Part shown: in pieces, positions 10,451 to 26,644 of the stretch
Layout of the letters: every line of letters starts with the position of its first letter
Numbering within the stretch: the first letter of the stretch is position 1
NCBI RefSeq assembly: GCF_025947225.1
Contig: NZ_CP110005.1
Span: 1,798,001-1,862,000, forward strand
From: Flavobacterium sp. N2270
GTDB lineage: Bacteria > Bacteroidota > Bacteroidia > Flavobacteriales > Flavobacteriaceae
Direction of reading: 5' to 3'
Length of the DNA: 64,000 nucleotides
Position numbers and translations under genes: made by a program
The notes under the pieces: generated by a model
The model's database searches: none
The model's input: only the letters and a program-made list of their open reading frames with translations
Told to the model about the DNA's origin: nothing

Positions 10451-10469
10451 AACAAACCGCTGTTAGCTG
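10451..10469. repeat. S20, collapsed half site at the distal end of the array
   Basis: AACAAACCGCTGTTAGCTG ends with the usual box-CTGTT and the core of C20, but the long centre and the other arm are missing: only eight bases separate AAC from GTT. Best read as a deleted or decayed terminal site. Confidence 0.6.
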
Positions 10470-10473
10470 ACGT

Positions 10474-11169
10474 TTATTTGTTTTCAAACATTTTCTTAAA
10501 GTTCGTTAGTTTTTTCGACAAGAATAATTCCTTAATTCGAGCTCCTAAAACTGGTTTGGCTTTGTTATGTTTAATTTTGTAAAATGGTTTTGGGACATAA
10601 GTTTTTAACATATATTCATTATATGTTGTTACATCATAAATAATTAAATTTCCTAAATCAATTTTAAAAGATTCCAGCTTTGAATTTATTATGAAATCTT
10701 CATCAGTATTAAATGAAAAACAACCAAATAATCTTCCTTTTTTATCTTCAAATAACGGATTATATTGATATTTTTGATGAAAGTAATATTTTCCATCCTC
10801 GCTTTTTGAAACATATAATAGCACATTCTCATAATCTTCAAAACCAGGTCTTCCATAATGATCATAAGCTACAAAATCTATTGTGTCTTTTTTAATGTCA
10901 TTAAATACTTTTTGTGAGATTAAGTATTTACACTTAAACCCTTTATCCATGCTATAAGTTTTATGAATTATTTTTTCCCCAGTTATTGAATCAATTTCAA
11001 CTTTTTCAACTTTTTCAGCGTTTGGGTCAAATTCTATAACTGATATTTTTTTACCGACAAAAGCAAACAAATTTACCGAAGTGTTTTCTTCGTAAAAATT
11101 ATCCTCTGCTTTATTTTGAGCAAAACAACCCAAAGAGAGAAAGAGAAAGTATGTAATTAAATTTTTCAA
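10474..11169 (-). CDS. C20: secreted protein of unknown function
   Basis: A 231-residue protein with an N-terminal signal peptide (KNLITYFLFLSLGCFAQ, cut probably after CFA). The mature part is mixed alpha/beta with several aromatic and lysine-rich strands, and no family is recognised. The only start giving a signal peptide is a TTG at 11167-11169, since no ATG lies nearby. The cassette core is GTTAGCTG with a mismatch at position 9, the weakest pairing of the array, which fits its position at the oldest end. Signal peptide predicts export to the periplasm or beyond. Confidence 0.65.
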   Translation of the reverse strand: MKNLITYFLFLSLGCFAQNKAEDNFYEENTSVNLFAFVGKKISVIEFDPNAEKVEKVEIDSITGEKIIHKTYSMDKGFKCKYLISQKVFNDIKKDTIDFVAYDHYGRPGFEDYENVLLYVSKSEDGKYYFHQKYQYNPLFEDKKGRLFGCFSFNTDEDFIINSKLESFKIDLGNLIIYDVTTYNEYMLKTYVPKPFYKIKHNKAKPVLGARIKELFLSKKLTNFKKMFENK

Positions 11170-11206
11170 ATTATTGTTTTACGTTCTGGTTTTTTAAATG
11201 GCAGCT

Positions 11207-11330
11207 AACGTTCCGGCGCTTGGCGAGGTTGCGAACTTCGGAACTGATTATTTTCTGTTAAAGATAAAATTTCTTGCGAAATGTAAACGTGAATTTACTA
11301 CAAAATTCGCAATCTTGCCAAACGCCTGTT
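11207..11330. repeat. S19, attC-like site between C19 and C20
   Basis: 124 bases, near-identical to S1 (family with GGCGCTTGGC paired to GCCAAACGCC). AAC at 11207 and GTT at 11328. TATCTTTA on the minus strand is one base off the promoter box present in S1. Confidence 0.85.
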
Positions 11331-11343
11331 GTGCGTAGTTTTT

Positions 11344-12486
11344 TTATTCCAAATCCCAATCGTCAAGTTCAAACCAAGCTGATTTTTCATTTTTTAAAAA
11401 TTTTACAATTCTTTTTTTTGGATCTGACCATTTTTTAGTTTCATTGTTATATATTTTTACATTATCATTAGTATAAATTACAATACCTTTTTTGTCACAG
11501 CTTTCAATAATTTTTACTTTTATTTTTAAATTTTTCTCATCTTTTTCAATTAAAATTCCTTTTGCTAAACAAATATCATCCATCCATTTGTCTTCTTGAC
11601 TTTGGTTAGAAAAACCATATTTATAATTGAACTCCAAAACATTACCTATTTTCAATTCAGCGAATGTTTCTTTCTTTTCTTTCAATTCTTTTTTTTCTCG
11701 TTCTAATTCATTTATTTTTGATTTTTCTTCCCATTCGACATATTCTTTAATTTGTTCATCAAATCTAATGTCTTCATTTTTTAAATAACGATAATAACTT
11801 TCCAAAATAACGACAGACATTGATTCAGGATGATTAATTTTATTATCTCGGAAAAATTTAGATAGGCGAGAACCGCCCCAAAGTTGCCAATTATTTCTCA
11901 TCCATAATCCAATCCCAAATCTATAATTACCTGACACATAATCTTCTTCTGTAAGTTTTGTGATTTTTAATTTTACGCTATCTGAATAAATTTTATTAAG
12001 TGAATTTATTGCATCATCAAGGTTTTTAGGAATATAAAATCCACTTAAGCTATCTGTTACATATCTGATTTCATTTTCTTTATTATTTTTTTGTTGTCTT
12101 AGTAGAAATGTTTTTAAAATTTCATCGTGTTTTGCTTTATTTCCTTTCAATTTATTTTGATAAGTTCTAAGCACAACTTCAATCATATCGTAAGGAATTT
12201 CCAATCCTTTCTTTTTGTAAAATTTTCCAAGGCTTGCATCTACTGTTGTACTCATTTGAGTCCATTTAAAAAACCAATTGTCCATTAAATCAAATTTCGA
12301 TTCGGAATTTTTGTAAAATATCAGCAAACTATCAGAAGAAATTTTTGTTAGTTTTTCTTTAATTTCTGTAGTTAGGTTTTTATCTAACGCTCTAATTGCT
12401 TGGTTTATATTTTTTGGTGATTTCGTTTCTTGTCCAAAGATTATGACGGAAAAGATTAAAAATATAATTGTGATTGAAAATCTCAT
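11344..12486 (-). CDS. C19: secreted protein with two DUF6794-like domains
   Basis: A 380-residue protein with a signal peptide (about 1-19, ending IIFGQ). Two copies of a domain of about 90 residues are visible: the second, near 155-240, has GIGLWMRNNWQLWGGSRLSKFF and HPESMSVVILESYYRYL, and the first, near 25-115, has the more diverged MDNWFFKWTQMS and IPYDMIEVVLRTYQ. This pattern fits DUF6794, whose function is unknown to me. A lysine/glutamate-rich coiled coil (about 245-275) links to a C-terminal beta domain of about 100 residues. Core GTTGTGCGTA. Confidence 0.75.
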   Translation of the reverse strand: MRFSITIIFLIFSVIIFGQETKSPKNINQAIRALDKNLTTEIKEKLTKISSDSLLIFYKNSESKFDLMDNWFFKWTQMSTTVDASLGKFYKKKGLEIPYDMIEVVLRTYQNKLKGNKAKHDEILKTFLLRQQKNNKENEIRYVTDSLSGFYIPKNLDDAINSLNKIYSDSVKLKITKLTEEDYVSGNYRFGIGLWMRNNWQLWGGSRLSKFFRDNKINHPESMSVVILESYYRYLKNEDIRFDEQIKEYVEWEEKSKINELEREKKELKEKKETFAELKIGNVLEFNYKYGFSNQSQEDKWMDDICLAKGILIEKDEKNLKIKVKIIESCDKKGIVIYTNDNVKIYNNETKKWSDPKKRIVKFLKNEKSAWFELDDWDLE

Positions 12487-12533
12487 TTCATTTTAATTTA
12501 CGCGGTTTCTTAAAATTACGCACAACGGTTTTG

Positions 12534-12650
12534 GCTATGGTTTCGCTGCGGAATAATTCGGCAGAATTATTCCGAGTACTCCCCAAAGTTAATAAAATGC
12601 TTGGAATTTCCGATAGGGAATTCCGTAGCAGTGAACTATAGCCGATGTTA
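12534..12650. repeat. S18, attC-like site between C18 and C19
   Basis: 117 bases, the shortest complete site and of a sequence type found once here. GGCTAT pairs with ATAGCC next to the ends; several inner hairpins (GAATAATTC-type) fill the centre. Confidence 0.8.
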
Positions 12651-12660
12651 GCCATAGTTG

Positions 12661-13140
12661 TTATTCCGTTCTTATTTCGGTTCTCAATTCAGTTTTAAAT
12701 TCCAACCAAATAGTCAAAATGTTTTCCGCATTATCGATTTCAATATCGTCAGTCGTATTTATTATTGTTAGCGATAAATTTTCAGTCAATTTTTTTTCAG
12801 CTCTTTTTGTATTTCGCCAAATCGGCTCAGAGTTTTCTCGGTTCAGTTCTTTTTCATTCGAGTATAATTTTCCAATGACATAATATGGAATGACGTACAA
12901 ATGGTGATTTTCGTAATCGTGAGGCATCAATTCATCCATTCCTTGTCCGACAGCTTTGGTCAAATCAATTCCAATTTTTTTGTCAAGTCCATTCAGTTCA
13001 GATTGAACATCGGAAATTTTAGTAACATAATTCAAACAGTCGGGACAATCGCAAATAAATCCGTTTTGGTTTGCATAGAATTTTTCCGTTTCTATTCGGT
13101 CAACTTCTATTTTTATATTTTCTAGTTCTACGGTTGTCAT
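12661..13140 (-). CDS. C18: cytoplasmic protein of unknown function with cysteine cluster
   Basis: A 159-residue protein starting at the ATG 13138-13140 (a TTG one codon upstream is unnecessary). Near residues 28-35 it has CDCPDCLNY, a possible metal-binding cluster, and then a soluble helical domain with HDYENHHLYVIPYYVIGKLY. The C-terminus repeats TELRTEIRTE. No signal peptide or membrane helix, one of four clearly soluble cytoplasmic products in the array. Core GTTAGCCATA. Family not recognised. Confidence 0.65.
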   Translation of the reverse strand: MTTVELENIKIEVDRIETEKFYANQNGFICDCPDCLNYVTKISDVQSELNGLDKKIGIDLTKAVGQGMDELMPHDYENHHLYVIPYYVIGKLYSNEKELNRENSEPIWRNTKRAEKKLTENLSLTIINTTDDIEIDNAENILTIWLEFKTELRTEIRTE

Positions 13141-13151
13141 CAATTATGGCT

Positions 13152-13281
13152 AACGTTTTGTGGCTTTGCATCAGTGGCTTGTGATTCAAGACTGACCACA
13201 ACAAATATAGACAAAATTTTGATTCATAGAGGTTTTTCCGAAGGAAAAACCAAGCCCAAGCCATTGTGCAAAACCACTGTT
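13152..13281. repeat. S17, attC-like site between C17 and C18, with -7 box
   Basis: 130 bases. GTGG-c-TTTGCA pairs with TGCAAA-a-CCAC; inner hairpin TTTTTCC/GGAAAAA. Minus-strand TATATTTG at 13202-13209 points at the C18 gene 62 bases away. Confidence 0.85.
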
Positions 13282-13296
13282 AGTTGCAGTAAACTA

Positions 13297-13866
13297 TTAA
13301 AGTTCTTTAATTTTATCTATTAAAAGGTCTCGAAGGTCAACATCATATTCTATAGTTCTTATTATAGTTTTATTTTCTTCCCCTTTTGATTTTATAATTG
13401 TATCTAAAAACAAGGTTTCTAGAACTTTTCCTTTAGGAGGAAGTAATTCAAGATAGTTTTCTATTTTCGAGTTTTCTCTAAAAAAAGTTGTGTCTAATTT
13501 TATAGTTTGATTACCGATTGAATCATTTGTAATTTTCCAACCGATAAATTGTGCATATCTTTTTTTTGGTATTGGATATTGCTTTTCATTAGGTGACCAA
13601 AGAACTAAATCATTTTCTATTATTTGTAGAAACATACTCTTTGAATAGTCAATTTCTCCATTTGGTAAAAAAGTGATTTTTTCATTAAGTTTTTTGGTAT
13701 TACCGTTTGAAAATCTATAAACGCAAATCATTTTATTATTCTCATTTTTCAAAACTACAATACTATCAACTGGAGTTTTAGTAGAAATACTTTGTGATTT
13801 TGGATTTTCGCGACCACAAGAAAATATAAGTATAATAATAAAAAGACTAATTAAATGGATTTTCAT
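13297..13866 (-). CDS. C17: lipoprotein of unknown function
   Basis: A 189-residue protein with a lipoprotein signal (IIILIFSCGRE; lipid attachment at Cys17). The mature part is beta-rich and includes NGEIDYSKSMFLQIIENDLVLW and a proline/lysine loop, with no recognised family. Its lipobox followed by polar residues suggests the outer or inner membrane, periplasm side. Core GTTAGTTGCA with 10 paired bases, then the fixed mismatch, then TAAA paired. Confidence 0.7.
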   Translation of the reverse strand: MKIHLISLFIIILIFSCGRENPKSQSISTKTPVDSIVVLKNENNKMICVYRFSNGNTKKLNEKITFLPNGEIDYSKSMFLQIIENDLVLWSPNEKQYPIPKKRYAQFIGWKITNDSIGNQTIKLDTTFFRENSKIENYLELLPPKGKVLETLFLDTIIKSKGEENKTIIRTIEYDVDLRDLLIDKIKEL

Positions 13867-13892
13867 TTACAACGATTTTTTTTATTGCAACT

Positions 13893-14022
13893 AACGTTTC
13901 GCGGCTAGCGAATGCCACAAGGATTCAGGACTAACCATAACAAATATAAAATAACTTTTGGAAAATCCGACAGGATTTCCCAAAAGTTGACCAAGCGTTT
14001 GTGGTTTTTGCTAACCGATGTT
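13893..14022. repeat. S16, attC-like site between C16 and C17, with -7 box
   Basis: 130 bases. CGG-c-TAGC pairs with GCTA-a-CCG; inner hairpin GGAAAATCC/GGATTTCC. Minus-strand TATATTTG at 13941-13948 points at the C17 gene 75 bases away. Confidence 0.85.
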
Positions 14023-14037
14023 GTATGCAGATTAAAT

Positions 14038-14475
14038 TTAATTTATTTTTTTGAAGTAACCAACATTTTTAAATACTGTTCCGCCTGATGATGTTTCAGT
14101 AAAGTCAGTTTTTAAATCTGTATTCGTCAACGTAATTACTGTTGAAATATCAGTTGAACCACCTGATGTTGTTGATATTGTAGTACCATTATAAACATAT
14201 GTACCACTTTCATCAGCTGTTGAATTACAATTTGCGTCATTATCGATTACTACATAAGTTCCATTAGTTTTGAATTCTATATAGTCTGGACAAGATGAAT
14301 TTTCTTCTACAGTAGTTTCAGTTTCATCTAAAACACCATCTGTATAATATTCAAATTTTACAGTTCTCCATTTTCCAACAATTGTTGGACTTTCATTATT
14401 GTCATCATCTTTACTACAACCAATAAAAGATGCTGCGAAAACCAATGTCAATGTTAATAATAAACTTTTTTTCAT
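14038..14475 (-). CDS. C16: small lipocalin-like lipoprotein
   Basis: A 145-residue lipoprotein starting at MKKSLLLTLTLVFAASFIGC; lipid attachment at the cysteine, followed by an acidic linker SKDDDNNE. The core IVGKWRTVKFEYY ... YIEFKTNGTYVV ... GTYVYNGTTIS fits the Bacteroidota lipocalin-like fold (antiparallel beta barrel with G-x-W near the start). An upstream in-frame ATG at 14499 would add eight residues before the signal and is less likely. Substrate unknown. Core GTTGTATGCA. Confidence 0.75.
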   Translation of the reverse strand: MKKSLLLTLTLVFAASFIGCSKDDDNNESPTIVGKWRTVKFEYYTDGVLDETETTVEENSSCPDYIEFKTNGTYVVIDNDANCNSTADESGTYVYNGTTISTTSGGSTDISTVITLTNTDLKTDFTETSSGGTVFKNVGYFKKIN

Positions 14476-14607
14476 AATTTTAAATTTTCCCCTTGCCATT
14501 TCTGACCATTAAGAACGAATATTTTAGGTACTTTTTTTTAGTTAGTTTTAGTCCGCTCTATTTTTATAATATATTGTTCAGATTTCGTTTTTTCATAATT
14601 TGCATAC

Positions 14608-14735
14608 AACGTGTTGCCGCTTGTGGCAGTTGCGTAAATTTATAACAAAAGATTACAAGTACAAAACTCCTCGTGGAATTTTCGGAGAAAATTCCGAACA
14701 CACACCAAGCCTAGCAATTGCTACAAACGGCTGTT
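14608..14735. repeat. S15, attC-like site between C15 and C16
   Basis: 128 bases, type A (GCCG-c-TTGTGGC against GCTACAA-a-CGGC), almost identical to S6, S11 and S14. No TAnnTTTG box inside. Confidence 0.85.
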
Positions 14736-14752
14736 ATAGCCAGTGTTTCTTG

Positions 14753-15349
14753 TCATTGTCCAACTTCATTTAGTAGTTTCGTCATTTCGTTATATGCTTC
14801 CGATTTAAGTCGCCCAAATTTCATTTTCTTAAAGTCAGGCCAGTCGGGTTCAGTTTTAATTATTGATTTGTCCGCACCGATTGTCAAGGTTGCAACAGTT
14901 TTGCTATTCTTTAAAAATTCAATTTTATATTCTGGTTCATATGTCGTCTCTGCCCAGTCAAATGAGACAGGGTCATTTATTATTTCCAAAAATTTGGCAG
15001 TCTGTTCGTTTGTGAGTGTCTTTGAAAACCCAATTGGTATTTTTTTAATTGTCAGTTCGTCAAAGGCTGTCATTGGATATAAACTGTCAACTTTGTTTTT
15101 GTCGTCCTTTAGGTCTGCAATTAGTTCTTTGGTCGTGTTAATATAAAACTCTCTAGTTGTCCAACCACCTTCTGTATCTGGTCCAACGTCTAACGTGTCA
15201 GAAAACAAAGTGTCAACAAGTTGTTGGTCTGTGTATTTGTCCCAATATTTTTCATAGCTATGTACGAAGTCTTTCCTGTCAGTCCTTGAACTGCAAGAAG
15301 CAACCAAAATTGTCAAAGTAAATATGATTATTTGTTTCGTAGTCGTCAT
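14753..15349 (-). CDS. C15: lipoprotein of unknown function
   Basis: A 198-residue lipoprotein (IFTLTILVASCSSR, lipid at Cys19). The mature part has an acidic helical region (about 25-100), a beta region with YEPEYKIEFLKNSKTVATLTIG and a C-terminal helix with MTKLLNEVGQ. No family recognised. Core GTTATAGCCA; the gene ends about 10 bases inside the cassette boundary. Confidence 0.7.
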   Translation of the reverse strand: MTTTKQIIIFTLTILVASCSSRTDRKDFVHSYEKYWDKYTDQQLVDTLFSDTLDVGPDTEGGWTTREFYINTTKELIADLKDDKNKVDSLYPMTAFDELTIKKIPIGFSKTLTNEQTAKFLEIINDPVSFDWAETTYEPEYKIEFLKNSKTVATLTIGADKSIIKTEPDWPDFKKMKFGRLKSEAYNEMTKLLNEVGQ

Positions 15350-15364
15350 TTTAACATTGGCTAT

Positions 15365-15492
15365 AACGTGTTGCCGCTTGTGGCAGTTGCGTAAATTTAA
15401 GACAAAAGATTACAAGTACAAAACCCCTCGTGGAATTTTCGGAGAAAATTCCGAACATAAACCATACCTAGCAATTGCTACAAACGGCTGTT
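15365..15492. repeat. S14, attC-like site between C14 and C15
   Basis: 128 bases, type A. AAC at 15365 and GTT at 15490. Differs from S15 at only a few positions. Confidence 0.85.
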
Positions 15493-15503
15493 AGCAACAG
15501 TTT

Positions 15504-16067
15504 TTATTCTTGCTTGTTCAAATAATCAATTAGTGAATTATATAAAGGATACATAGTTCCCTGGTCTGTCCAACCGTCCCACATTAAATTTACATAAATT
15601 TCATTTTGATAAATAAAATCAGCTTTGCTTGGGTCATAAATAGATATTCCAGTGTATAAAGAAGTATTGTTGTTAGTTTCTTTTTTTTCTTTAGTAAAGT
15701 GAAGTATTACAAAAGAACCATAATGATTATAAGCGTTTTTTAAACCAATTCTATCAGAAACACTTGGAATTTTATCTTCCAAATTTTTAGAAATTATATC
15801 TTTTTGAAATTCTTCAAACGTCATTATTTTGTCAAAAAAATTCAAATTTTTAACCATCTCAAGTGTGTACTCATCGTTTGGAACAATTATTAATTTTTTT
15901 AAAATGTCTTTACTAATTTTTTCTTCTTTAATGACAGTTACAGCTTTGTTTTTTTTAGCTGGAAAGTATCCAGTTTTGCTATCTATTTTAGATGTTTTGT
16001 TAAAAGTTCCACACGAAATAGAAGTAGAGATGCATATCAAAATGGTAAGTAATTTAATAGATTTCAT
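15504..16067 (-). CDS. C14: lipoprotein of unknown function
   Basis: A 187-residue lipoprotein (LLTILICISTSISCGTF, lipid at Cys19). The rest is alpha/beta with IIVPNDEYTLEMVKNLNFF, GSFVILHFTKEKK and a DQGTMYPLYNSLIDYL end, and might bind other envelope components; no family recognised. Core GTTAGCAACA, 10 bases paired, then TTTT paired after the fixed mismatch. Confidence 0.7.
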   Translation of the reverse strand: MKSIKLLTILICISTSISCGTFNKTSKIDSKTGYFPAKKNKAVTVIKEEKISKDILKKLIIVPNDEYTLEMVKNLNFFDKIMTFEEFQKDIISKNLEDKIPSVSDRIGLKNAYNHYGSFVILHFTKEKKETNNNTSLYTGISIYDPSKADFIYQNEIYVNLMWDGWTDQGTMYPLYNSLIDYLNKQE

Positions 16068-16091
16068 TTAGTATTTCTTAAAATTGTTGCT

Positions 16092-16214
16092 AACGTGTTT
16101 GTATATGGTTTGTTGCGTGGTTTAGCACGTAATTTAGCAAATAAAAACCGAATAGAAAATCCGCGAGGATTTTCGTAAGTAGGCTAGAACTAGCAATAAA
16201 TTATATACGGTGTT
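16092..16214. repeat. S13, attC-like site between C13 and C14
   Basis: 123 bases, sequence type found once. GTATAT pairs with ATATAC near the ends; the centre has a hairpin AAAATCCGCG/CGAGGATTTT. Confidence 0.8.
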
Positions 16215-16227
16215 GTACTTAGTTTTT

Positions 16228-16971
16228 TTATTCGTTTACTGATGAATTACTTATCCTATCTAATAATTCCGGTTTGTAATCCTTTATTAACTGTATAATA
16301 TTCTTTTTCTGCCAATCAGAACTGTAAGGCGAAATCATTAACTCAGATATCAATAGATCTAAATCTATTTTTAAAGAAATTATCTTTTTATGACTTTCAG
16401 TCCCATTGAGATAATCCATTAAAATTCTGTGTTTAATCTCAGGTTTATCAAATTGAGTTATAATTTCATCCAAACCAGTTATAAAGAATCTCACTTCCGC
16501 TTCCTCTTCATATGCTTTATTCTTAGTGTTAATAATTACTATGTTGTTTTGTAACTCCTCAAAGTGAAATTCATTTCTGTAATCTACAATTGCATAACTG
16601 AAGCTAAATTTGTTCCAGTCAACTGCTTTTATAAAATTACCTACGTTGGATTTAATCGCAACTCCTTGCTTAGTCGAGTCTAAATATGTTGCCCAAAGTG
16701 ACCTGGATTCATTTTCTTTCATTGTCCAGCAACTGATGTAAGTTGAATTCCTTAAATTCTTAATATGTTTGCTTGCGCTTTCAGCATGTGTTTCAAATTC
16801 TTTGGATTCTTCTAAGTTTTTTAAAATCCAATTAATTTCATTTTTGTCAGTAGCAATTGATGCTAATGTAAACTTGATTGTACCAGTTAGCAGAATGTCA
16901 ATGAATTTATCAAGTCCAATATATCTCCAAATTATAGATTCATTTGATGGTCTAATAGGTGTTTGAAACAT
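16228..16971 (-). CDS. C13: DUF2971 family protein
   Basis: A 247-residue cytoplasmic protein that fits DUF2971: WRYIGLDKFIDILL near the start, a small-residue turn TDKNEINW, the hallmark ISCWTMKENESRSLWATYLDS near residues 79-99, YAIVDYRN near 125-132 and EEEAEVRF near 154-161. The molecular role of DUF2971 is not established to my knowledge. It is one of the few cassette genes with a recognised domain. Core GTTGTACTTA. Confidence 0.8.
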   Translation of the reverse strand: MFQTPIRPSNESIIWRYIGLDKFIDILLTGTIKFTLASIATDKNEINWILKNLEESKEFETHAESASKHIKNLRNSTYISCWTMKENESRSLWATYLDSTKQGVAIKSNVGNFIKAVDWNKFSFSYAIVDYRNEFHFEELQNNIVIINTKNKAYEEEAEVRFFITGLDEIITQFDKPEIKHRILMDYLNGTESHKKIISLKIDLDLLISELMISPYSSDWQKKNIIQLIKDYKPELLDRISNSSVNE

Positions 16972-16993
16972 AGATTCTCTTTAAATTAAGTAC

Positions 16994-17118
16994 AACGGTC
17001 TCGTATAACCGTCAGTTACGGGTTTTAAATTACTATTTTTCGGTTAAGCACAGACGCTCGCAATTCCGAGTGGATTCGGACGTAGTCGAATCCGCCGTAA
17101 TTGCGGTTATACATTGTT
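16994..17118. repeat. S12, attC-like site between C12 and C13
   Basis: 125 bases, type found once. GTATAACCG pairs with CGGTTATAC; inner GATTCGGAC/GTCGAATC hairpin. The last codons and stop of C12 lie inside this site. Confidence 0.8.
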
Positions 17119-17391
17119 GGCAGTAGTTTTTAATTTTCTTATTTCAGTTAAAAGTTTACTTATATCTTGTTTTGCGTTTGCTATAAAGATAATATCATCC
17201 TTTGTTCCACCTGTCAATTCAATATCGTTTCCTCTTTCTGGATTTTTAAAGTCAGTACTGTTCTTGACATTAGTCATAATAAAATCCGAGCCAGAATCGT
17301 GAGTTATTCCCTCAATCATAGGAATCCAATTTCCTTTTGTGGAGTTATTTAATCGTTTTTCTATTTCCTTTAATTCTAATTCAGTTAACAT
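17107..17391 (-). CDS. C12: small cytoplasmic protein, C-terminus encoded by the site
   Basis: A 94-residue soluble protein beginning MLTELELKEIEKRLN; contains GTKDDIIFIANAKQDISKLLTEI, a pattern seen in small Bacteroidota hypothetical proteins. The reading frame passes the cassette core (GTTGGCAGTA) and stops 12 bases inside S12, so the C-terminal residues (ANNV) come from the recombination site. It is preceded by a 2-TM gene with a four-base gap; the pair may be one functional unit. Confidence 0.6.
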   Translation of the reverse strand: MLTELELKEIEKRLNNSTKGNWIPMIEGITHDSGSDFIMTNVKNSTDFKNPERGNDIELTGGTKDDIIFIANAKQDISKLLTEIRKLKTTANNV

Positions 17392-17395
17392 TTTA

Positions 17396-17641: not shown

Positions 17642-17664
17642 TTCGGTTTTCTCAAATTACTGCC

Positions 17665-17792: not shown

Positions 17793-17804
17793 ACCAGCAG
17801 TAAT

Positions 17805-19876: not shown

Positions 19877-19925
19877 TCTATTGATTTTCTTGTTTTTACG
19901 TTCTGTTTTTTTTTAACTATCTGCT

Positions 19926-20055
19926 AACGTTCTGCGGCTTGCTCACAGTGGCGTTGCACCAACACCAAGCCATTACAAATATAACAAAACATTCCATTCA
20001 GCAGCGGATTTTCCGTAGGAAAATCCGGAAGTAGCCATTGAAGCAAACCGCTGTT
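19926..20055. repeat. S8, attC-like site between C8 and C9, with -7 box
   Basis: 130 bases. GCGG-c-TTGC pairs with GCAA-a-CCGC; inner hairpin GGATTTTCC/GGAAAATCC. Minus-strand TATATTTG at 19976-19983, 100 bases before C9. Confidence 0.85.
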
Positions 20056-20066
20056 AGTAGAAGGCT

Positions 20067-20582
20067 TTATTTTTTTAAAATTGCTTTTCCATTAAATAGT
20101 TTATGCTCTGAATAAATTGTAATTCCGAGTATTTTCCATTCCATAATTCCATTCACGATGTAATTACAATAGTTTTTGTCTTTCTCTTTATCGATATCAA
20201 TATTCTCAACATTCCAATTTGTTCCACTTATGAATCCAGCTCTACTACAATTTGCATTCAGAATTACATATTCATTTTCTTTTTCACCTACAAGAATTGA
20301 TAGTCCAATATCTGAAGCTAAATTATTTTCTAATTTGATTTCTTTAAAAAACGAATTTCCATCAAATGCTTTTTTAGGATTTGATTGGTTAAGAAAATCA
20401 ATATTTTTATCGGCTAAATTTTTTTCATTTGGTTTTGACATAAATGATAATAAGCCTATAACAAAAATCAGGGATGCAAAAACTCCTATCTTTTCTTTAA
20501 TTATTTTTACTGATTTAAAGCATATTACAATAAAATAAATAAGTAAAAATCCATTAAATATTCCCCAAATTAATTCAAACAT
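20067..20582 (-). CDS. C8: membrane-anchored protein of unknown function
   Basis: A 171-residue protein with two N-terminal hydrophobic segments (about 3-23 and 32-51) followed by a soluble domain of about 115 residues with FKEIKLENNLASDIGLS and EWKILGITIYSEHKLFNGKA. The topology suggests a small domain anchored in the cytoplasmic membrane. Family not recognised. Core GTTAGTAGAA. Confidence 0.65.
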   Translation of the reverse strand: MFELIWGIFNGFLLIYFIVICFKSVKIIKEKIGVFASLIFVIGLLSFMSKPNEKNLADKNIDFLNQSNPKKAFDGNSFFKEIKLENNLASDIGLSILVGEKENEYVILNANCSRAGFISGTNWNVENIDIDKEKDKNYCNYIVNGIMEWKILGITIYSEHKLFNGKAILKK

Positions 20583-20630
20583 AATTTTTGTTTTTAAATG
20601 ATTCTTCTTTGTTATCCCAAGCTTTCTACT

Positions 20631-20758
20631 AACGTCCTGCAGCTAGCCTTCAGTGGCGATGATTTAGAACTGTACAACACAAATATAGACAAACTTTGGA
20701 AAATCCGAAGGATTTTCCAGACAAAAACTGCACCAAGCCATTGAGGCTAACTGCTGTT
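20631..20758. repeat. S7, attC-like site between C7 and C8, with -7 box
   Basis: 128 bases. GCAG-c-TAGCC pairs with GGCTA-a-CTGC; inner hairpin GGAAAATCC/GGATTTTCC. Minus-strand TATATTTG at 20680-20687, 98 bases before C8. Confidence 0.85.
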
Positions 20759-20773
20759 GTACACAGTATTTAT

Positions 20774-21223
20774 TTAACAATTCAATTCAGAATTATTAAG
20801 GTGTAATTTTTTATCTCCATAAAAGACAAACCAATCTACAATTCGGTCGCCAATTCTATCAAATATGTCATCTTCCAAATATGGTTGATTTTCAATATTT
20901 ATTTTATCTAAATCAGCATTAATTTGCTTAATAGTTTCTATATCAAATATTTTCTCATCAATTAGCTTTTCTCTCAGATATGCTACTAATAATTTATGGC
21001 AATTGTTATTAAAATTTCCGTTTCCATTTCGGTGTGCTTCGTCACGTAATTTCTCAATAGCTCTTAATAATTCACCTTGAACAGTTTTTGCTTGTCCAGA
21101 TTTAGGCACAAAGTTTTGCCATATAAATTTCCCTTTTTCTAAATATTCTGCTTGTGTCATTTCTTTCGTTTTCTCACAATTTGATAATAACAGAATTAGG
21201 ATTATGTATAAAGTTTTTCTCAT
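20774..21223 (-). CDS. C7: small lipoprotein of unknown function
   Basis: A 149-residue lipoprotein (LYIILILLLSNCEKT, lipid at Cys16). The mature part is helical with an E/K-rich stretch EMTQAEYLEKGKF and a helix DDIFDRIGDRIVDWFVFYG. Family not recognised. Core GTTGTACACA. Confidence 0.7.
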   Translation of the reverse strand: MRKTLYIILILLLSNCEKTKEMTQAEYLEKGKFIWQNFVPKSGQAKTVQGELLRAIEKLRDEAHRNGNGNFNNNCHKLLVAYLREKLIDEKIFDIETIKQINADLDKINIENQPYLEDDIFDRIGDRIVDWFVFYGDKKLHLNNSELNC

Positions 21224-21232
21224 ATTGTGTAC

Positions 21233-21360
21233 AACGTGTTGCCGCTTGTGGCAGTTGCGTAAATTTATAACAAAAGTTTACAAGTACAAAACTCCTCGTA
21301 GAATTTTCGGAGAAAATTCCGAACACAAGCCAAGCCTAGCAATTGCTACAAACGGCTGTT
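21233..21360. repeat. S6, attC-like site between C6 and C7
   Basis: 128 bases, type A, with the same boxes and inner AATTTTCGG/CCGAA-type hairpin as S5, S11, S14 and S15. Confidence 0.85.
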
Positions 21361-21372
21361 AGCAGTGGTTTT

Positions 21373-21771
21373 TTAACTCCAACTCATTCGGATTGTGACC
21401 TTTTCTTTTTCAACACTTACTTTTCCACCAAGTGATTCATTTTCGCCCGGAAAAACTTCGTAAGTTTTGTTTACTCCTTTTATTTTTGGTTTACTTTTTT
21501 TAAGTCTCTTACTATTAAGAATCCAATTTTCAATTTGCTTTTCATCAGCTTTAAATTCAATAGTAAAAGTTCGGGTAAACATACTTCCTGATTTTTCAAC
21601 GCTAAGATTTTCTACTTCTTTCGGCAGTTCTGCTAAACCGCCCCAATTTAATGTCGTTTTAATCGCTTCTGCTTTTTGCCAAGGAAAAACAATGCTTGAG
21701 AAAAAGTTCAAATAGCCGAAAATCAAAAGAACGAATAGGAGAGAAGCTAGTATTTTAATTGTCTTTTTCAT
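21373..21771 (-). CDS. C6: small membrane-anchored protein
   Basis: A 132-residue protein with an N-terminal membrane segment (about 6-28) and a soluble beta-rich domain with MFTRTFTIEFKADEKQIENW and the end GKVSVEKEKVTIRMSW. The hydrophobic segment could also be an uncleaved signal. Family not recognised. Core GTTAGCAGTG. Confidence 0.65.
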   Translation of the reverse strand: MKKTIKILASLLFVLLIFGYLNFFSSIVFPWQKAEAIKTTLNWGGLAELPKEVENLSVEKSGSMFTRTFTIEFKADEKQIENWILNSKRLKKSKPKIKGVNKTYEVFPGENESLGGKVSVEKEKVTIRMSWS

Positions 21772-21809
21772 TAACTAAAAATTTTCTTTTCTGAGGCAAA
21801 ATCACTGCT

Positions 21810-21967
21810 AACGTGTTGCCGCTTGTGGCAGTTGCGTAAATTTATGACAAAAGATTACAAGTACAAAACTCCTCGTGGAATTTTCGGAGACTCGAGCACT
21901 TTGTGCGAACTGGCGAAGCAAAATTCCGAACACACACCGAGCCTAGCAATTGCTACAAACGGCTGTT
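21810..21967. repeat. S5, attC-like site between C5 and C6, with 30-base insertion
   Basis: 158 bases, type A but with 30 additional bases (21891-21920) between TTTTCGGAGA and AAATTCCGAAC in the loop. The insert contains GCACTTTGTGC, a small hairpin of its own. Boxes at both ends are unchanged. The C5 reading frame ends inside it. Confidence 0.85.
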
Positions 21968-22665
21968 ACCTGCTGGCTTTTATTCGGTCGTGATAAATTC
22001 GATAAAGCCAAAAGTCCTCCAACTGCTAATATTGCTCCTCCAACAAAAGGAAATCCAGCACCAACTAAATCTGCCATATTAGATGAAAAAAGAAATGGCA
22101 AACAGAATATCATTCCAAAAATACCAGCTGCTATTGAAGCAAAAGCTCCAAATTTAGTAACTCGTTTCATATCAAATATTGTTTTATGTTCAAATTCTGG
22201 TTTTAATAATTCAGCTCTTAATTCAGTTAGATTTCGAGTTGCATACTTTTCGATTGTCCATTCCGAAATTCCGATAGAGTTCTTCCCTTTTTTAAAGTCC
22301 GAATAAAAAGTACGCCACAAGTCTGGAAGTAAAATTGCTCCGAAAAACAGAATGGCAAATGAAGGAATAGAATAATTTCCATTTCCAACCATAAAAGCTT
22401 GCATTCGGATTTCGTCTTCAGCTGTCATTTGGTAGTTAAGTAAAACGTGTTTCAAATCATGGCTTTCATATTTGGGCACTAATGTCAAACTATGACTGTC
22501 AAGACAATTTGCAATTTCCTTTCCTAAAGTACCGTTTTTAAGATTTCTTAATTCATTAACTTGTTTATGGTACTTATCCATTTCACTGAAGCACTCAATT
22601 GTCTTAACGGATGTGTCAAATGAAATTTTGATTATTCGTCTAGCTATTTTCTGTAAAATATTCAT
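21943..22665 (-). CDS. C5: membrane protein whose C-terminus is encoded by the site
   Basis: A 240-residue protein starting at MNILQKIARR (22663-22665; a longer frame reads through S4). The N-terminal part is soluble and helical (KYHKQVNELRNLKNG); hydrophobic segments lie about 112-130, 177-198 and 208-228. The frame has no stop before the cassette core and ends with SQQVTAVCSNC, whose last residues are encoded by site S5; the stop is a TAG in the arm. Family not recognised. Core GTTACCTGC, shared with C1. Confidence 0.6.
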   Translation of the reverse strand: MNILQKIARRIIKISFDTSVKTIECFSEMDKYHKQVNELRNLKNGTLGKEIANCLDSHSLTLVPKYESHDLKHVLLNYQMTAEDEIRMQAFMVGNGNYSIPSFAILFFGAILLPDLWRTFYSDFKKGKNSIGISEWTIEKYATRNLTELRAELLKPEFEHKTIFDMKRVTKFGAFASIAAGIFGMIFCLPFLFSSNMADLVGAGFPFVGGAILAVGGLLALSNLSRPNKSQQVTAVCSNC

Positions 22666-22694
22666 TTGCGTATTTTTTTGTTCAGCTTGCAGGT

Positions 22695-22824
22695 AACGTT
22701 TTGCAGCTAAAAGAAGTGGCGACGAGCCAAGACCAAGCCAAAACAAATATAACGCAAACTTTTGAATTTTCGGAGAAAATTCGGAAGTATGCCCTTGCTT
22801 AAGCCATTACTTTTAACTGCTGTT
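22695..22824. repeat. S4, attC-like site between C4 and C5, with -7 box
   Basis: 130 bases. GCAG-c-TAAAAG pairs with CTTTTA-a-CTGC; almost identical to S2. Minus-strand TATATTTG at 22744-22751, 79 bases before the C5 start. Confidence 0.85.
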
Positions 22825-22836
22825 ATGCGTGGTTTT

Positions 22837-23301
22837 TTATTTTACGATTCTTTTGTCCGCAATAAGGTTTCCACTTCCATAAATGGAGTTTTTAAATTCA
22901 AGTGCAGTTTTGTTATTAATGATTGGTTTGAAAACATAATTATTAGTGTCTTTTCTCACTGTGGATTCATACACATAAGCAGCATTAGTTTTTCTTTTTA
23001 CTTCTAACGTGTCATAAAAAGAAGGATTTTTTTCTTGTGAAAACAAAACTTTATCCTCATCATTATACGCAACAAAAAAAAATTCTCCAGTATATTTTTG
23101 GCCTATTTTCAATTCTTTGTTTTCTGCAGGAATATGCCTAACAAATACATGATCAAATATGTATTTAGTTTTCAACGTATTAAGAACTGTCATTAAGCTA
23201 TCGTTTGTTTTTTGTAATTCAGTTGCTCTTTTTGATAGTTCAGTATTTTCATTACAACTCATTATAATGAAACTAAGAGAAATAATAATTATTTTCTTCA
23301 T
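22837..23301 (-). CDS. C4: lipoprotein with coiled coil
   Basis: A 154-residue lipoprotein (IIIISLSFIIMSCNEN, lipid at Cys16). Residues about 20-45 form a short coiled coil (LSKRATELQKTNDSLMTVL), followed by a beta-rich domain with LKIGQKYTGEFFFVAYNDE. Could be a small envelope adaptor; family not recognised. Core GTTATGCGTG. Confidence 0.7.
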   Translation of the reverse strand: MKKIIIISLSFIIMSCNENTELSKRATELQKTNDSLMTVLNTLKTKYIFDHVFVRHIPAENKELKIGQKYTGEFFFVAYNDEDKVLFSQEKNPSFYDTLEVKRKTNAAYVYESTVRKDTNNYVFKPIINNKTALEFKNSIYGSGNLIADKRIVK

Positions 23302-23357
23302 ATAATATGTTTATTAATTTTAATATTACTGTTTGTTCGTTCGACAAAATCACGCAT

Positions 23358-23481
23358 AACGTTTCGCAGCTACAGGAAGTTGGCGATTTCGAAGCACTAA
23401 ACTGTCTGCCAGCACTACACTTGATACGAAGCACAAAACTTCATTTAACCACTGAACCGCCAATTTTTTGTAGGTGCTGTT
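23358..23481. repeat. S3, attC-like site between C3 and C4
   Basis: 124 bases. GCA-g-CTAC pairs with GTAG-g-TGC, then TTGGC/GCCAA further in. No TAnnTTTG box inside. Confidence 0.85.
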
Positions 23482-23492
23482 ACAAGCTGGGC

Positions 23493-24539
23493 TTATTGTC
23501 CTGTCAGCCATTTGAAAACATAATTTGCAACTATTCCTGTCAAAATACTTATAGCAATTGAAGCCCAAAACCAATAAACTTTTCTTTCGCTTTTCTTAAC
23601 TTGTAAGTCTCTGTTTTTCTTTGCTTCTCTAGTTAATACTAGATAGCTTTTGGTTTTATTGTCTGCTTGTGATTCAACCCAAACACCCAAGATTATTGCG
23701 ATAAAAATGGATACAACAATGAATAATAAACTTTTAAGGAAAAATAAATTTTGGTTGTTTTGTGCAATATAGTTTAACAAATAGTCAATTTTTCCATCTA
23801 TAACGGTTGTGTTTTTCACAAACTCCGTTACATTGTTAATCTCGCTTATATTGAATGACCGTGTGTAGAAAAATATACCGACTAGCGAACTAATTAAAAA
23901 TAACAATCCCGTAAACAGTCCAATTCGTTCACTTCTTCGTCTAACAAATTCTTTCAATTTCGAGCAAGGCGTCAAAATTGAATTAATTTGATTCGTAATT
24001 AAAGATTCAATGTCTGCTCCCCAAGTTCTTGCTGTATGCTTAATAATTATGCGAAACTGTCCGTAACTTGGAAAAATTACAGGAATATCGTCATCTTCAA
24101 TCACGTTTCTTTGTGGAGTAGAAACTATCATCAATTCGATTTCTTGCTTCTCAGGCACATTTTTGTCTGCAAATTGAATTAAATAAGCCCAAGTCATTCT
24201 TACTGCTTCGGAAATTACCGGTTTCACTTCATTGTACGTGACTAATTCTTCATATGAACTCAATAAAACAGAAGATTCATCCGAATAGTAAATTTGAGTT
24301 TTCAGATGAACGAGTTTTCCGTTATTCTGCTGAGTAATTCTTTGATTTATTAAGTCGTGAAAATTTTGTAAGTCCTTTAAATGTACTTCGAAATTACCCT
24401 TTATTCTTTTTGTAATGGTTTGCGGTGTTCCAAGAAGTCCTTTTATGAATTCCTTAAATTGGTCTTCATTAAAAGGTAGAGTTAAATACCCTTTTTGAAA
24501 GTCTTGAACCTGTCCTACTTCAGAGTTTTTCTTTTCCAT
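23493..24539 (-). CDS. C3: membrane protein with large soluble domain
   Basis: A 348-residue protein: an N-terminal soluble domain of about 200 residues (with NEDQFKEFIKGLLGTPQTI and VHLKTQIYYSDESSVLLSSY), then hydrophobic helices near 206-226, 262-284 and 325-345. The three-helix C-terminal layout suggests a membrane-bound protein with a cytoplasmic domain. Family not recognised. It is among the largest cassette genes. Core GTTACAAGC with position 10 also mismatched. Confidence 0.65.
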   Translation of the reverse strand: MEKKNSEVGQVQDFQKGYLTLPFNEDQFKEFIKGLLGTPQTITKRIKGNFEVHLKDLQNFHDLINQRITQQNNGKLVHLKTQIYYSDESSVLLSSYEELVTYNEVKPVISEAVRMTWAYLIQFADKNVPEKQEIELMIVSTPQRNVIEDDDIPVIFPSYGQFRIIIKHTARTWGADIESLITNQINSILTPCSKLKEFVRRRSERIGLFTGLLFLISSLVGIFFYTRSFNISEINNVTEFVKNTTVIDGKIDYLLNYIAQNNQNLFFLKSLLFIVVSIFIAIILGVWVESQADNKTKSYLVLTREAKKNRDLQVKKSERKVYWFWASIAISILTGIVANYVFKWLTGQ

Positions 24540-24587
24540 TAATTTTGTTTTTATTTATTTCGTTGGTTGTCTGTTAGCCTTGCTTGT

Positions 24588-24716
24588 AACGTTTTGCAGC
24601 TAAAAGAAGTGGCGACGAGCCAAAACCAAGCCAAACAAATATAACGCAAACTTTTGAATTTTCGGAGAAAATTCGAAAGTATGCCCTTGCCTAAGCCATT
24701 GCTTTTAACTGCTGTT
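24588..24716. repeat. S2, attC-like site between C2 and C3, with -7 box
   Basis: 129 bases. Same type as S4. Minus-strand TATATTTG at 24636-24643, 97 bases before C3. Confidence 0.85.
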
Positions 24717-24739
24717 GTAACACGTTTTTATTTATTAAA

Positions 24740-24985
24740 TTACTTTTTTGTTTTTTCTCTGATTAACTGAAAAGTCAGAATTATAATAATTCCTATTCCG
24801 ATTATCAATAATCCATATTTCAATAATCCAGTTAGAAATAATGTAGGAAATCCATCATAACGAAACTTACTCATTTTTTCTACGAGATTTGAAATCACGT
24901 TGGTATTCTCCAAAAAGAAATAGCAGACAATACATATTAAACCAATAATATATAGTCGTAAAATATTTAATTTTTTTTTACTCAT
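24740..24985 (-). CDS. C2: small membrane protein
   Basis: An 81-residue protein with two membrane helices (about 8-28 and 52-74) and a basic C-terminus. It is the second gene of the C2 cassette, starting six bases after its partner. Shape and size resemble the membrane protein of C12. Family not recognised. Confidence 0.6.
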   Translation of the reverse strand: MSKKKLNILRLYIIGLICIVCYFFLENTNVISNLVEKMSKFRYDGFPTLFLTGLLKYGLLIIGIGIIIILTFQLIREKTKK

Positions 24986-24991
24986 CTACAG

Positions 24992-25444
24992 CTATTCTTT
25001 TTCTTTTATGAATTTCAAAAGGTCAATTAAATGTTTTTCCGAATGAGTTCTCATAGAAAAATCAAATTCCCAAAGAGCATCCATTTCACTTGTGTTGTCC
25101 ATTTTCCATTTTACAGTAAGTAAGTCTTTTATAATATCAGTTAAATCGTCTAAAGCATCTCCAATTCCAATTTCAACATTTGGTTGTATTTCGTTTAAAT
25201 TCAAAACCATACTATACCAATCAAAATTAGGAAAATTGGATTTTACATTTTTTCTTATTTCTGCGTAATCAAATTCTGGTTCTTCTTCATATTCTTTGTT
25301 GTCAAATTCAAATTCTACATTTAGATATTCAGAATAAATTTCAACTAATAGTTTTTTTAAGACATCAGTTTTGTCTGAAATTCCAACTTTCGGTTTAATT
25401 CCGAATTCAGTTATTTGGTCTATTAATTTTCTTAATTTACTCAA
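24992..25444 (-). CDS. C2: soluble protein of unknown function
   Basis: A 150-residue acidic protein with a TTG start (25442-25444), no better ATG being near. It contains NFDWYSMVLNLNE and an acidic region YEEEPEFDYAE, with a C-terminal helical end MRTHSEKHLIDLLKFIKEKE. Looks soluble and cytoplasmic; family not recognised. First gene of a two-gene cassette whose core GTTGTAACAC pairs over 10 bases. Confidence 0.6.
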   Translation of the reverse strand: MSKLRKLIDQITEFGIKPKVGISDKTDVLKKLLVEIYSEYLNVEFEFDNKEYEEEPEFDYAEIRKNVKSNFPNFDWYSMVLNLNEIQPNVEIGIGDALDDLTDIIKDLLTVKWKMDNTSEMDALWEFDFSMRTHSEKHLIDLLKFIKEKE

Positions 25445-25472
25445 TTTTTCTTGGTTTGGTAAAATGTGTTAC

Positions 25473-25596
25473 AACGTTCCGGCGCTTGGCGAGGTTGCGA
25501 ACTTCGGAACCGATTATTTTCTATCAAAGATAAAATTTCTTGCGAAATGTAAACGTGAATTTACCACAAAATTCGCAATCTTGCCAAACGCCTGTT
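25473..25596. repeat. S1, attC-like site between C1 and C2, with -7 box
   Basis: 124 bases. GGCG-c-TTGGC pairs with GCCAA-a-CGCC. Minus-strand TATCTTTG at 25525-25532, 81 bases before C2. Near-identical to S19 at the other end of the array. Confidence 0.85.
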
Positions 25597-25613
25597 ACCT
25601 GCTGGCTTTGTTA

Positions 25614-26543
25614 TCAGATTTTCTGTAGCCATTTTATTATTTGTTTCGGGTCTGCAATGCTCCAAGAATTGGGATGTCTAACTTTATTCGGCATTCTGTA
25701 ACCTTTATTTGTTGTTGTTATTAATACTGCATTTTTATTACCTAATCTTTGTAACTCATTAATCATTGCTACTTGGTCAAAAATGTTGTTATATGAACAA
25801 TCATAATTACGTTCTTTTAAGTACCACTGAATGTCAGGCTCTGAAATAATCATAATAGGAATTTTGATTAAGTTTTTTATTGCTTTTTGTGTGATGTCAG
25901 AGAACGAATATGGTGATTGGGAATGATAACTTTCCAATACTGTTTCTGGTGTTCCACCCATTTCTTTTTCTATTCGGCTAATCATATAGAAAACTTCATC
26001 ATTAACTTTTGTAGTGTCTGAAAGTCTTATAACTCTTTTTGCTCCATTATAATAACGTTCCCAATCAAGAATTGGATTAATTGCAAAAATTGCTTTCGGT
26101 TTAATTTCATAATTTTCTTGAACAGCTAATTCAGAATATTTTACAGCACAAGTCCCGCCAATTCCAAATCCGCCAATATAAAAATCTTTACCTTTTAATT
26201 GATATTTAGAAACTACAAGAAGAATAATTTCTTTTAAAGATTCTTGAGATGCAATATCACTTCCCCAATATGTAGAGCCTGTCTTTAAAACAGGCATAAT
26301 TGTCAAGATGCCATTTTTCGTGGCAAATTTTGGAATTTCTGTTTGTGATAATGCACTATTTGGGGAATTTCCAAAACCATCCAACAGTATCATAAACGAT
26401 TTTACACTTTCATTTTTTGGTAAAACAGCTATGAACATATTTGAGGTGCTGTCTTTTTCATTCAAGTAAACTGTTTCAGTTCTCTGTCCGTAAGATACGT
26501 TTGAGATAAAAATTGTCAGTAAAAGTATTATTGTTCTTCTCAT
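25614..26543 (-). CDS. C1: alpha/beta hydrolase-like secreted protein
   Basis: A 309-residue protein with a signal peptide (IILLLTIFISNVSYGQ). FYIGGFGIGG near residues 121-130 is the nucleophile-elbow region, but a glycine replaces the serine expected at the elbow, so activity is uncertain; HPNSWSIADPKQIIKWL closes the fold. It is a distant relative of the C9 product, which has a serine (SSGG). As the cassette next to the attI-like site it should be the most recent arrival if insertion occurs there. Core GTTACCTGC. Confidence 0.75.
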   Translation of the reverse strand: MRRTIILLLTIFISNVSYGQRTETVYLNEKDSTSNMFIAVLPKNESVKSFMILLDGFGNSPNSALSQTEIPKFATKNGILTIMPVLKTGSTYWGSDIASQESLKEIILLVVSKYQLKGKDFYIGGFGIGGTCAVKYSELAVQENYEIKPKAIFAINPILDWERYYNGAKRVIRLSDTTKVNDEVFYMISRIEKEMGGTPETVLESYHSQSPYSFSDITQKAIKNLIKIPIMIISEPDIQWYLKERNYDCSYNNIFDQVAMINELQRLGNKNAVLITTTNKGYRMPNKVRHPNSWSIADPKQIIKWLQKI

Positions 26544-26570
26544 TGTTTTGGTTTTCTTAAGCTTGCAGGT

Positions 26571-26644
26571 AACTTGTTTATATGTATGATGTAGTCATAC
26601 ATATATGCCCAATTTTGGCTGTATATGTATGATAAGCATCATAC
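26571..26644. promoter_or_regulatory. attI-like junction
   Basis: The core of C1 ends at 26573 and is not followed by an attC-type arm. Instead TATATGTATGAT occurs twice in the same orientation (26579-26590, 26622-26633), with TCATACATATA in inverse orientation at 26595-26605, which makes an 11-base palindrome with the first copy (loop five bases). This is the organisation expected of recombinase-binding repeats next to an integron insertion point. Assignment is inferred from position and symmetry. Confidence 0.6.

What the first reader, a model, noticed from the sequence alone, without database searches (positions are those of the whole stretch)
10462..26573. Integron-like array of 20 cassettes
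Twenty units, 21 genes, all on one strand, separated by palindromic sites with attC-like layout and next to a tyrosine recombinase. The boxes do not match GTTRRRY, so standard attC models could miss them. Seen directly: sites, repeats, orientation. Inferred: that cassettes move by site-specific recombination.
Basis: partly seen in the sequence, partly recalled or inferred. Interest (0 to 1): 0.95.

Follow-up and report, generated by a model that had tools for sequence, protein, structure and literature searches.

The report
A hidden second kind of integron
A Flavobacterium chromosome carries 20 gene cassettes in a row beside a recombinase that lacks the special domain of known integron enzymes, and exact copies of three of them in a second array half a megabase away begin and end at the predicted cutting point, so this is likely a separate kind of gene-shuffling integron that usual searches would overlook.

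Summary
The array is real, and it is an integron-type system. Twenty cassettes (26573 to 10464, minus strand) each begin GTT plus seven variable bases and end with the reverse complement plus AAC. The match is within the cassette (118 of 120 positions), not across the local site (32 of 114). The sites are attC-like hairpins whose bottom strand folds better (428 of 457). The insertion point (attI) lies between array and recombinase; in 37 of 46 relatives with a site it sits 92 to 108 bp after the recombinase's last codon. Three window cassettes have 100% identical copies in a second, recombinase-less array about 0.5 Mb away, which has an identical attI; identity ends within four bases of the next GTT. 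The recombinase lacks the integron-specific I2 region, is a deep relative of IntI, and relatives occur in 130 of 247 Bacteroidia genomes. GTTRRRY boxes and extrahelical bases are also mostly absent. Some cassettes keep their gene but carry a different hairpin, a possible footprint of second-strand exchange. Recombination itself is inferred, not demonstrated. New variant of a known kind; interest high.

The parts
26825..27871 (-). Tyrosine recombinase, 348 aa, without the I2 region; reads towards the cassettes
   Evidence: PF00589 5e-42; NF040815 225.5 bits over cut-off 220, TIGR02249 209 below cut-off 265; 2A3V residues 209-241 unmatched; Arg-I to HxxR spacing 91 against 133 in IntI
27653..27871 (-). 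N-terminal domain of the recombinase (about 70 aa, beta-beta-alpha-beta-beta-alpha), role unknown
   Evidence: alignment A5, model m58537d9f0c8a; weak DUF5710 hits in 8 of 22 relatives
26723..26811 (.). 11-bp tandem repeats TACATACTCC[AG]
   Evidence: part of the repeat tract is also present beside the second attI of the genome
26571..26643 (-). attI: two lineage-specific palindromes, a central ACCC..GGGT-like palindrome, then TATAAACAA^GTT
   Evidence: 100% identical 73-nt copy at G000:C1:2286033-2286105
25476..26573 (-). Cassette 1 with its attC-like site (25475-25596); ORF 25614-26543
24591..25475 (-). Cassette 2 with site (24590-24716); two ORFs
23361..24590 (-). Cassette 3 with site (23360-23481)
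22698..23360 (-). Cassette 4 with site (22697-22824)
21813..22697 (-). Cassette 5 with site (21812-21967); 100% copy (885 bp) at G000:C1:2336903
21236..21812 (-). Cassette 6 with site (21235-21360); 100% copy (577 bp) at G000:C1:2338614
20634..21235 (-). Cassette 7 with site (20633-20758)
19929..20633 (-). Cassette 8 with site (19928-20055)
18851..19928 (-). Cassette 9 with site (18850-18974)
18370..18850 (-). Cassette 10, no ORF of 70 aa or more, with site (18369-18496); 100% copy (481 bp) at G000:C1:2328199
17668..18369 (-). Cassette 11 with site (17667-17792)
16997..17667 (-). Cassette 12 with site (16996-17118); two ORFs
16095..16996 (-). Cassette 13 with site (16094-16214)
15368..16094 (-). 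Cassette 14 with site (15367-15492); body 98.8% identical to a copy at G000:C1:2291978 that carries a different hairpin
14611..15367 (-). Cassette 15 with site (14610-14735)
13896..14610 (-). Cassette 16 with site (13895-14022); lipocalin-like ORF
13155..13895 (-). Cassette 17 with site (13154-13281)
12527..13154 (-). Cassette 18 with site (12526-12649)
11210..12526 (-). Cassette 19 with site (11209-11330); DUF6794 ORF
10464..11209 (-). Cassette 20, last of the array; end box at 10464, own-end match 5 of 6
10357..10466 (-). Degenerate or truncated last site
   Evidence: 15.9 bits, E 0.2

Best explanation
This is a chromosomal integron-type array in which the adjacent XerA-like tyrosine recombinase, which lacks the integron-specific I2 domain, likely inserts circular gene cassettes at attI and moves them between hairpin sites. 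Shown by sequence: each cassette runs from GTT to the next GTT; its two ends are complementary to each other; identical cassettes sit in another array with identity bounded at GTT; attI lies at a fixed place after the recombinase gene in most relatives that show a site; the site's bottom strand folds better than its top strand. Inferred: the recombinase is the enzyme that acts; the folded bottom strand of the circular cassette is the substrate; strand transfer occurs at G^TT of attI or of a site; the resulting junction is resolved by replication, or by a second strand exchange that can swap the hairpin between cassettes. The second array of the genome has attI but no recombinase gene and is predicted to be served in trans.
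For: Own-end match of at least 5 of 6: 468 of 499 cassettes from the window and fetched loci, against 58 of 499 for the two boxes of one site (10 cassettes of L120 and G204, one genome, are counted twice). Orientation: 205 of 205 covariance-model sites in 80 recombinase loci lie on one strand, 203 of them downstream of the gene (downstream by hand count). attI at +92..+108 in 37 of 46 loci with a site. Three identical cassettes elsewhere: 2 to 12 identical bases before their GTT, 3 or 4 from the next G, upstream neighbour stems only 51-59% identical. Identical 73-nt attI at the second array. Bottom strand more stable: 19 of 19 window sites, 428 of 457 overall, control segments 120 of 456. Recombinase and site counts associate across 199 Flavobacterium genomes (Fisher p 2.5e-7). 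Arrays beside relatives of the recombinase in other families and on a Chryseobacterium plasmid.
Against: No recombination was observed. Recombinase activity, circles and single-strand use are inferred. The link is not one to one: of 101 Flavobacterium genomes without a recombinase hit at 1e-60, 73 still have at least one site and 35 have four or more; of 98 with a hit, 8 have no site. In 9 of 46 loci the first cassette start found is not at +92..108. Beside class-wide relatives, 25 of 40 regions had no site, many of them cut short by the contig end. The AlphaFold model has pTM 0.51. One stem position runs against the bottom-strand preference.
Confidence: 0.86

Rival explanations
1. The cassettes are moved by another enzyme, such as the cell's own XerC/XerD or a classical IntI acting in trans, and the neighbouring recombinase is a bystander.
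For: The second own array has no recombinase gene and works, if at all, in trans. Own XerC/XerD-like proteins exist. 73 of 101 genomes without a close recombinase hit keep some sites.
Against: The recombinase is the gene next to attI in 37 of 46 loci with a site, at a fixed distance, and site counts are higher where it is present. No TIGR02249 match at 1e-50 was found in the own genome, and the one same-class genome listed with a match is in another family.
Confidence: 0.08
2. A static array: unrelated genes separated by spreading hairpin elements (MITE- or REP-like), or grown by tandem duplication, with no cassette movement.
For: Near-identical hairpins stand beside unrelated genes (118 own-genome pairs).
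Against: A spreading hairpin cannot explain why the two ends of each gene unit match each other but not across the hairpin, nor 100% gene-plus-hairpin copies at other places, nor the attI junction.
Confidence: 0.03
3. Copies of cassettes arose by ordinary homologous recombination or gene conversion between arrays.
For: Some sites in one genome are over 90% identical and could serve as homology.
Against: For the three identical cassettes the upstream neighbour stems are only 51-59% identical and the shared stretch before GTT is 2 to 12 bases. C5 and C6 are neighbours in the window and separated in the other array.
Confidence: 0.03

Closest known systems
Integrons (IntI, attI, attC), including sedentary chromosomal integrons
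   Same: attI beside a tyrosine recombinase, tandem one-strand cassettes with hairpin sites, box complementarity (extended to 9-11 nt in most classical cassettes too: PMC2727003, passages), GTT cut position, more stable bottom strand, recombinase-less clusters
   Different: Recombinase lacks I2; boxes not GTTRRRY; extrahelical bases on the R''-L'' arm mostly absent; attI lies after the recombinase gene, which reads towards the cassettes (the opposite, usual layout of class 1 is recalled); hairpin and gene look separately exchangeable
XerA-type recombinases (NF040815; PDB 5HXY, 4A8E)
   Different: Extra N-terminal domain of about 70 aa; beside an attI and an array; groups with IntI against four Xer rows (99/98)
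CALIN (attC clusters without integrase)
   Same: The second own array (58 model hits) has no recombinase gene
   Different: It keeps its own identical attI

Membership tests
Integron (strict sense) | IntI-specific additional domain (I2) in the recombinase | tested here: not met
   Arg-I to HxxR spacing 91-94 in 122 of 124 recombinases examined, 133 in 17 of 20 IntI loci, the other 3 not measurable; 33 residues of 2A3V unmatched; TIGR02249 below cut-off. Feature as defined in PMC9668308 and PMC4792948 (passages)
Integron (strict sense) | attC R box GTTRRRY | tested here: not met
Integron (strict sense) | Two to three extrahelical bases on the R''-L'' arm | tested here: not met
   35 of 581 distinct sites have any extra base there; the finder favours in-register stems, so this is somewhat biased. 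Definition from PMC2727003 (passages)
Integron (works like) | Box complementarity within each cassette | tested here: met
   468 of 499
Integron (works like) | attI next to the recombinase gene | tested here: met
   37 of 46 loci with a site; window at 252 bp
Integron (works like) | Bottom strand of the site forms the better hairpin | tested here: met
   428 of 457 against 120 of 456 control segments
Integron (works like) | Same cassette at different places with cut-point boundaries | tested here: met
Integron (works like) | Recombinase catalyses attI x attC recombination | not testable with these tools
   needs an assay
Integron (works like) | Pc promoter drives the first cassettes | not tested
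   -
XerA (NF040815) | Family model over its cut-off | tested here: met
   225.5 over 220 bits
XerA (NF040815) | Acts at dif in chromosome dimer resolution | not tested
   -
HARP / XPB damage-recognition fold (N-terminal domain) | Structural match | tested here: inconclusive

The most novel reading that the evidence does not exclude
Bacteroidia carry a second, I2-free branch of integrons, sister to the IntI branch, so folded single-strand cassette recombination predates I2 or does not need it. Without I2 and extrahelical bases to block cutting at the L box, its recombinase also completes the second strand exchange on folded sites. This swaps whole hairpins between cassettes and hands attC sites to new genes: a working route of cassette genesis.
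Probability: 0.45. Interest if true: 0.97.

Novelty: new variant of a known kind. Interest (0 to 1): 0.9.

Why it matters
Published work holds that integron integrases moved from double- to single-strand recombination by acquiring I2 (PMC7790495, passages), and an earlier survey took only proteins with that domain as integron integrases (PMC2426708, passages). A large clade with the whole cassette system and no I2 would change the account of how integrons arose, give a natural I2-free enzyme for testing strand choice and junction resolution, and open a large unread cassette pool in Bacteroidia. [quoted passage not shown] In the titles and abstract openings listed by the ten searches of the open-access library I saw no description of such a system in Flavobacterium; subscription papers and preprints were not covered.

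Tried and rejected
Rfam scan of the window: no match. tRNA or tmRNA as insertion target: none in the window. The 409-aa recombinase beside the small own array (L004) was considered as an alternative enzyme; it is a weaker PF00589 match (71 bits), and a look for the first cassette start of that array found no attI-like junction. First tree contained a mis-extracted IntI row (L204, branch over 8); rebuilt. In one search the I2-free group alone is one side of a branch in 38% of bootstrap trees (21%); holding it together is not rejected (p-AU 0.41), so 'sister' or 'paraphyletic to IntI' is open. IntI with XerA is also not rejected (p-AU 0.22), and only four Xer rows were used. PDB sequence search with the N-terminal domain gave nothing usable. 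PHROGs gave integrase families and two families of unknown function. Homology of cassette genes: few Pfam matches (47 of the own small and giant array cassettes) and isolated PADLOC matches, no common function. Contig ends just after the recombinase: in a hand-typed, incomplete list 13 of 34 ends within 320 nt fall at +97..122, that is at attI, which would fit mixed first cassettes in a population; kept as a weak hint only. The stem-agnostic chain test cannot tell strands apart, because GTT..AAC pairs read the same on both strands. In the conserved stem one position is top-strand T.G in 13 of 18 window sites (bottom A.C), against the bottom-strand preference. A pair with identical bodies and 79% stems (L149_3700, L150_15390) differs inside the stem, not at its base, so not every stem difference is a swap at AAC.
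Full report
Where it is. The window is G000:C1:1798001-1862000 of a 2.79-Mb single-contig genome.

The units. Twenty units on the minus strand run from 26573 to 10464. Each starts with GTT and about seven variable bases and ends with the reverse complement of these plus AAC. Identity between the start and the reversed end of the same unit is 118 of 120 over six variable positions; between the two boxes of one local site it is 32 of 114; shuffled pairings give mean 47.9 and at most 80 in 100000. This is what a circular cassette closing on itself requires, and it does not follow from hairpins or spacers alone. Over the window and fetched relatives, 468 of 499 units match their own other end at 5 or 6 of 6 positions, and 58 of 499 across the site (the L120 and G204 loci are one genome, so 10 units are counted twice). 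The longest ORF lies on the cassette strand in 417 of 468. Only 17 of 468 starts fit GTTRRRY.

The sites. They are 123 to 158 nt long in the window: AACA, an 18-pair stem, a variable tip, then CGTT. On 18 of the 19 window sites (the long site 5 left out) the stem shows 73 double-change cells (shuffles 22.9) and 81% of cells paired (shuffles 57.9; slid versions at most 43). Folded in circular form, the bottom strand is more stable in 19 of 19 window sites by 4.8 kcal/mol on average, and in 428 of 457 sites overall, against 120 of 456 control segments. One stem position is A.C on the top strand, hence T.G on the bottom strand, in 18 of 18; another is the reverse in 13 of 18. Across 581 distinct sites bottom G.T outnumber bottom A.C 953 to 516. 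Classical attC sites have two to three unpaired bases on the R''-L'' arm (PMC2727003, passages). Here 35 of 581 have any, with the caveat that the finder favours in-register stems.

attI. In 46 of the 80 recombinase loci the finder sees a site after the gene. In 37 of the 46 the first cassette begins 92 to 108 bp after the last codon of the recombinase, usually directly after a TATAtACaA motif. Upstream lie two palindromes whose sequence differs between lineages (TATGA..TCATA, TCTGA..TCAGA, GCGAA..TTCGC, AGCCA..TGGCT), around a central ACCC..GGGT palindrome (consensus of 41 sequences). In the window the distance is 252 bp; the tract between holds 11-bp tandem repeats.

Evidence for movement. 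A covariance model of 18 window sites finds 89 sites in the own genome (150 of 3463 candidates scored): 19 in the window array, 58 in a second array (2288873-2344608), 7 in a small third one and 5 elsewhere (hand count). The second array has no PF00589 gene near it but carries a 73-nt attI identical to that of the window. A third, degenerate attI (76%) has one matched cassette. Window cassettes 5 (885 bp), 6 (577 bp) and 10 (481 bp) have 100% identical copies, site included, in the second array. Before their GTT the copies share only 12, 7 and 2 further bases, and from the next G only 4, 3 and 4; the neighbouring upstream stems are 59, 51 and 56% identical. Cassettes 5 and 6 are neighbours in the window and separated by one cassette in the second array. 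Between species, near-identical cassettes also occur, for example G179/G203, L081/L138 and L132/own genome. Only 29 of 224 cassette proteins cluster with any other, so array contents differ widely.

Hairpin swaps. Of 39 cassette pairs with bodies at least 90% identical (the duplicate genome removed), 32 also share the stem at 85% or more, 6 have stems under 70% and one 79%. Two of the six share one cassette and are likely one event. In the four swapped pairs displayed, body identity of 95 to 99.9%, variable end box included, stops within about eight bases after AAC. For five swapped pairs I looked at all ten stems: eight have a counterpart of 86 to 99% identity on an unrelated cassette, seven of them 92% or more. 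Conversely, 118 own-genome pairs share a stem at 90% or more with unrelated bodies, and the identity profile is high from AAC to GTT and falls outside. Gene body and hairpin therefore behave as two modules. A second strand exchange on a folded site, cutting at R' on one strand and at L'' on the other, would do exactly this; in IntI, extrahelical bases and the I2 that holds them are said to prevent it (PMC4792948, passages). This step is inference.

Distribution. Recombinase at E up to 1e-60: 98 of 199 Flavobacterium genomes. Sites: 163 of 199 (stricter filters). Across the class, relatives at 1e-45: 130 of 247 genomes, 81 of 135 genera. Of 40 regions fetched beside class relatives, 15 have at least one site after the gene (51 sites, none on the other strand), and 30 of 32 cassettes match their own ends. 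In 6 of the 22 regions with 3 kb or more after the gene, a stem-blind chain test exceeds all 20 simulated sequences; in the other 16 it does not. IntI itself is over its cut-off in 84 of 296 genomes of the phylum; among the listed positives one (G247) is in the same class. A Chryseobacterium plasmid carries the recombinase, the attI motif and six model hits with E at most 0.01, all on one strand.

Limits. No reaction has been observed. Counts from genome searches depend on a model built from one array. Hand counts are marked. Papers were read as passages only.

Noticed in passing
G000:C1:2286033-2344608 (L148-L151): Second, much larger own array (58 model hits) with an identical attI and no recombinase gene; predicted to be served in trans.
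   Followed up: yes
G000:C1:2016866-2018954 (L225): Third, degenerate attI with one matched cassette (start GTTGTGCAT, end ATGCACAAC).
   Followed up: partly
L268 (Chryseobacterium sp. SNU WT5 plasmid NZ_CP041688.1): Plasmid-borne recombinase, attI motif and array; an IS110-family transposase gene and a group II intron lie inside the array, between sites. L269 (C. oryzae plasmid) has the recombinase and the attI motif but no clear sites.
   Followed up: partly
window 27653-27871: Conserved N-terminal domain of the recombinase with a W..W..PD motif; weak likeness to DUF5710 and to the XPB damage-recognition and SMARCAL1 HARP folds, which could bear on hairpin recognition.
   Followed up: partly
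window 18370-18850: Cassette 10 has no ORF of 70 aa or more, yet has an identical copy in the second array; gene-less cassettes with promoters are described for Vibrio (PMC11014356, search listing only).
   Followed up: no
window 27947-28006 and 28107-28166: A roughly 60-bp near-identical direct repeat upstream of the recombinase gene.
   Followed up: no
G247:C40:3592-4530: A protein over the IntI cut-off in a same-class (Bacteroidia) genome, in another family.
   Followed up: no
own small and giant arrays (L147-L150): Single cassettes match SMI1/KNR4, Imm74, DKNYY and ankyrin families, some of them immunity-type.
   Followed up: no
plasmids collection: Relatives of the recombinase on 50 Acinetobacter plasmids; not examined.
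   Followed up: no
cassette starts and ends: A nearly fixed A at +10 after the G of GTT (identity 1.0, rounded, over 118 own-genome pairs) faces a commonly C position at the other end: A.C on top, G.T on the bottom strand.
   Followed up: partly
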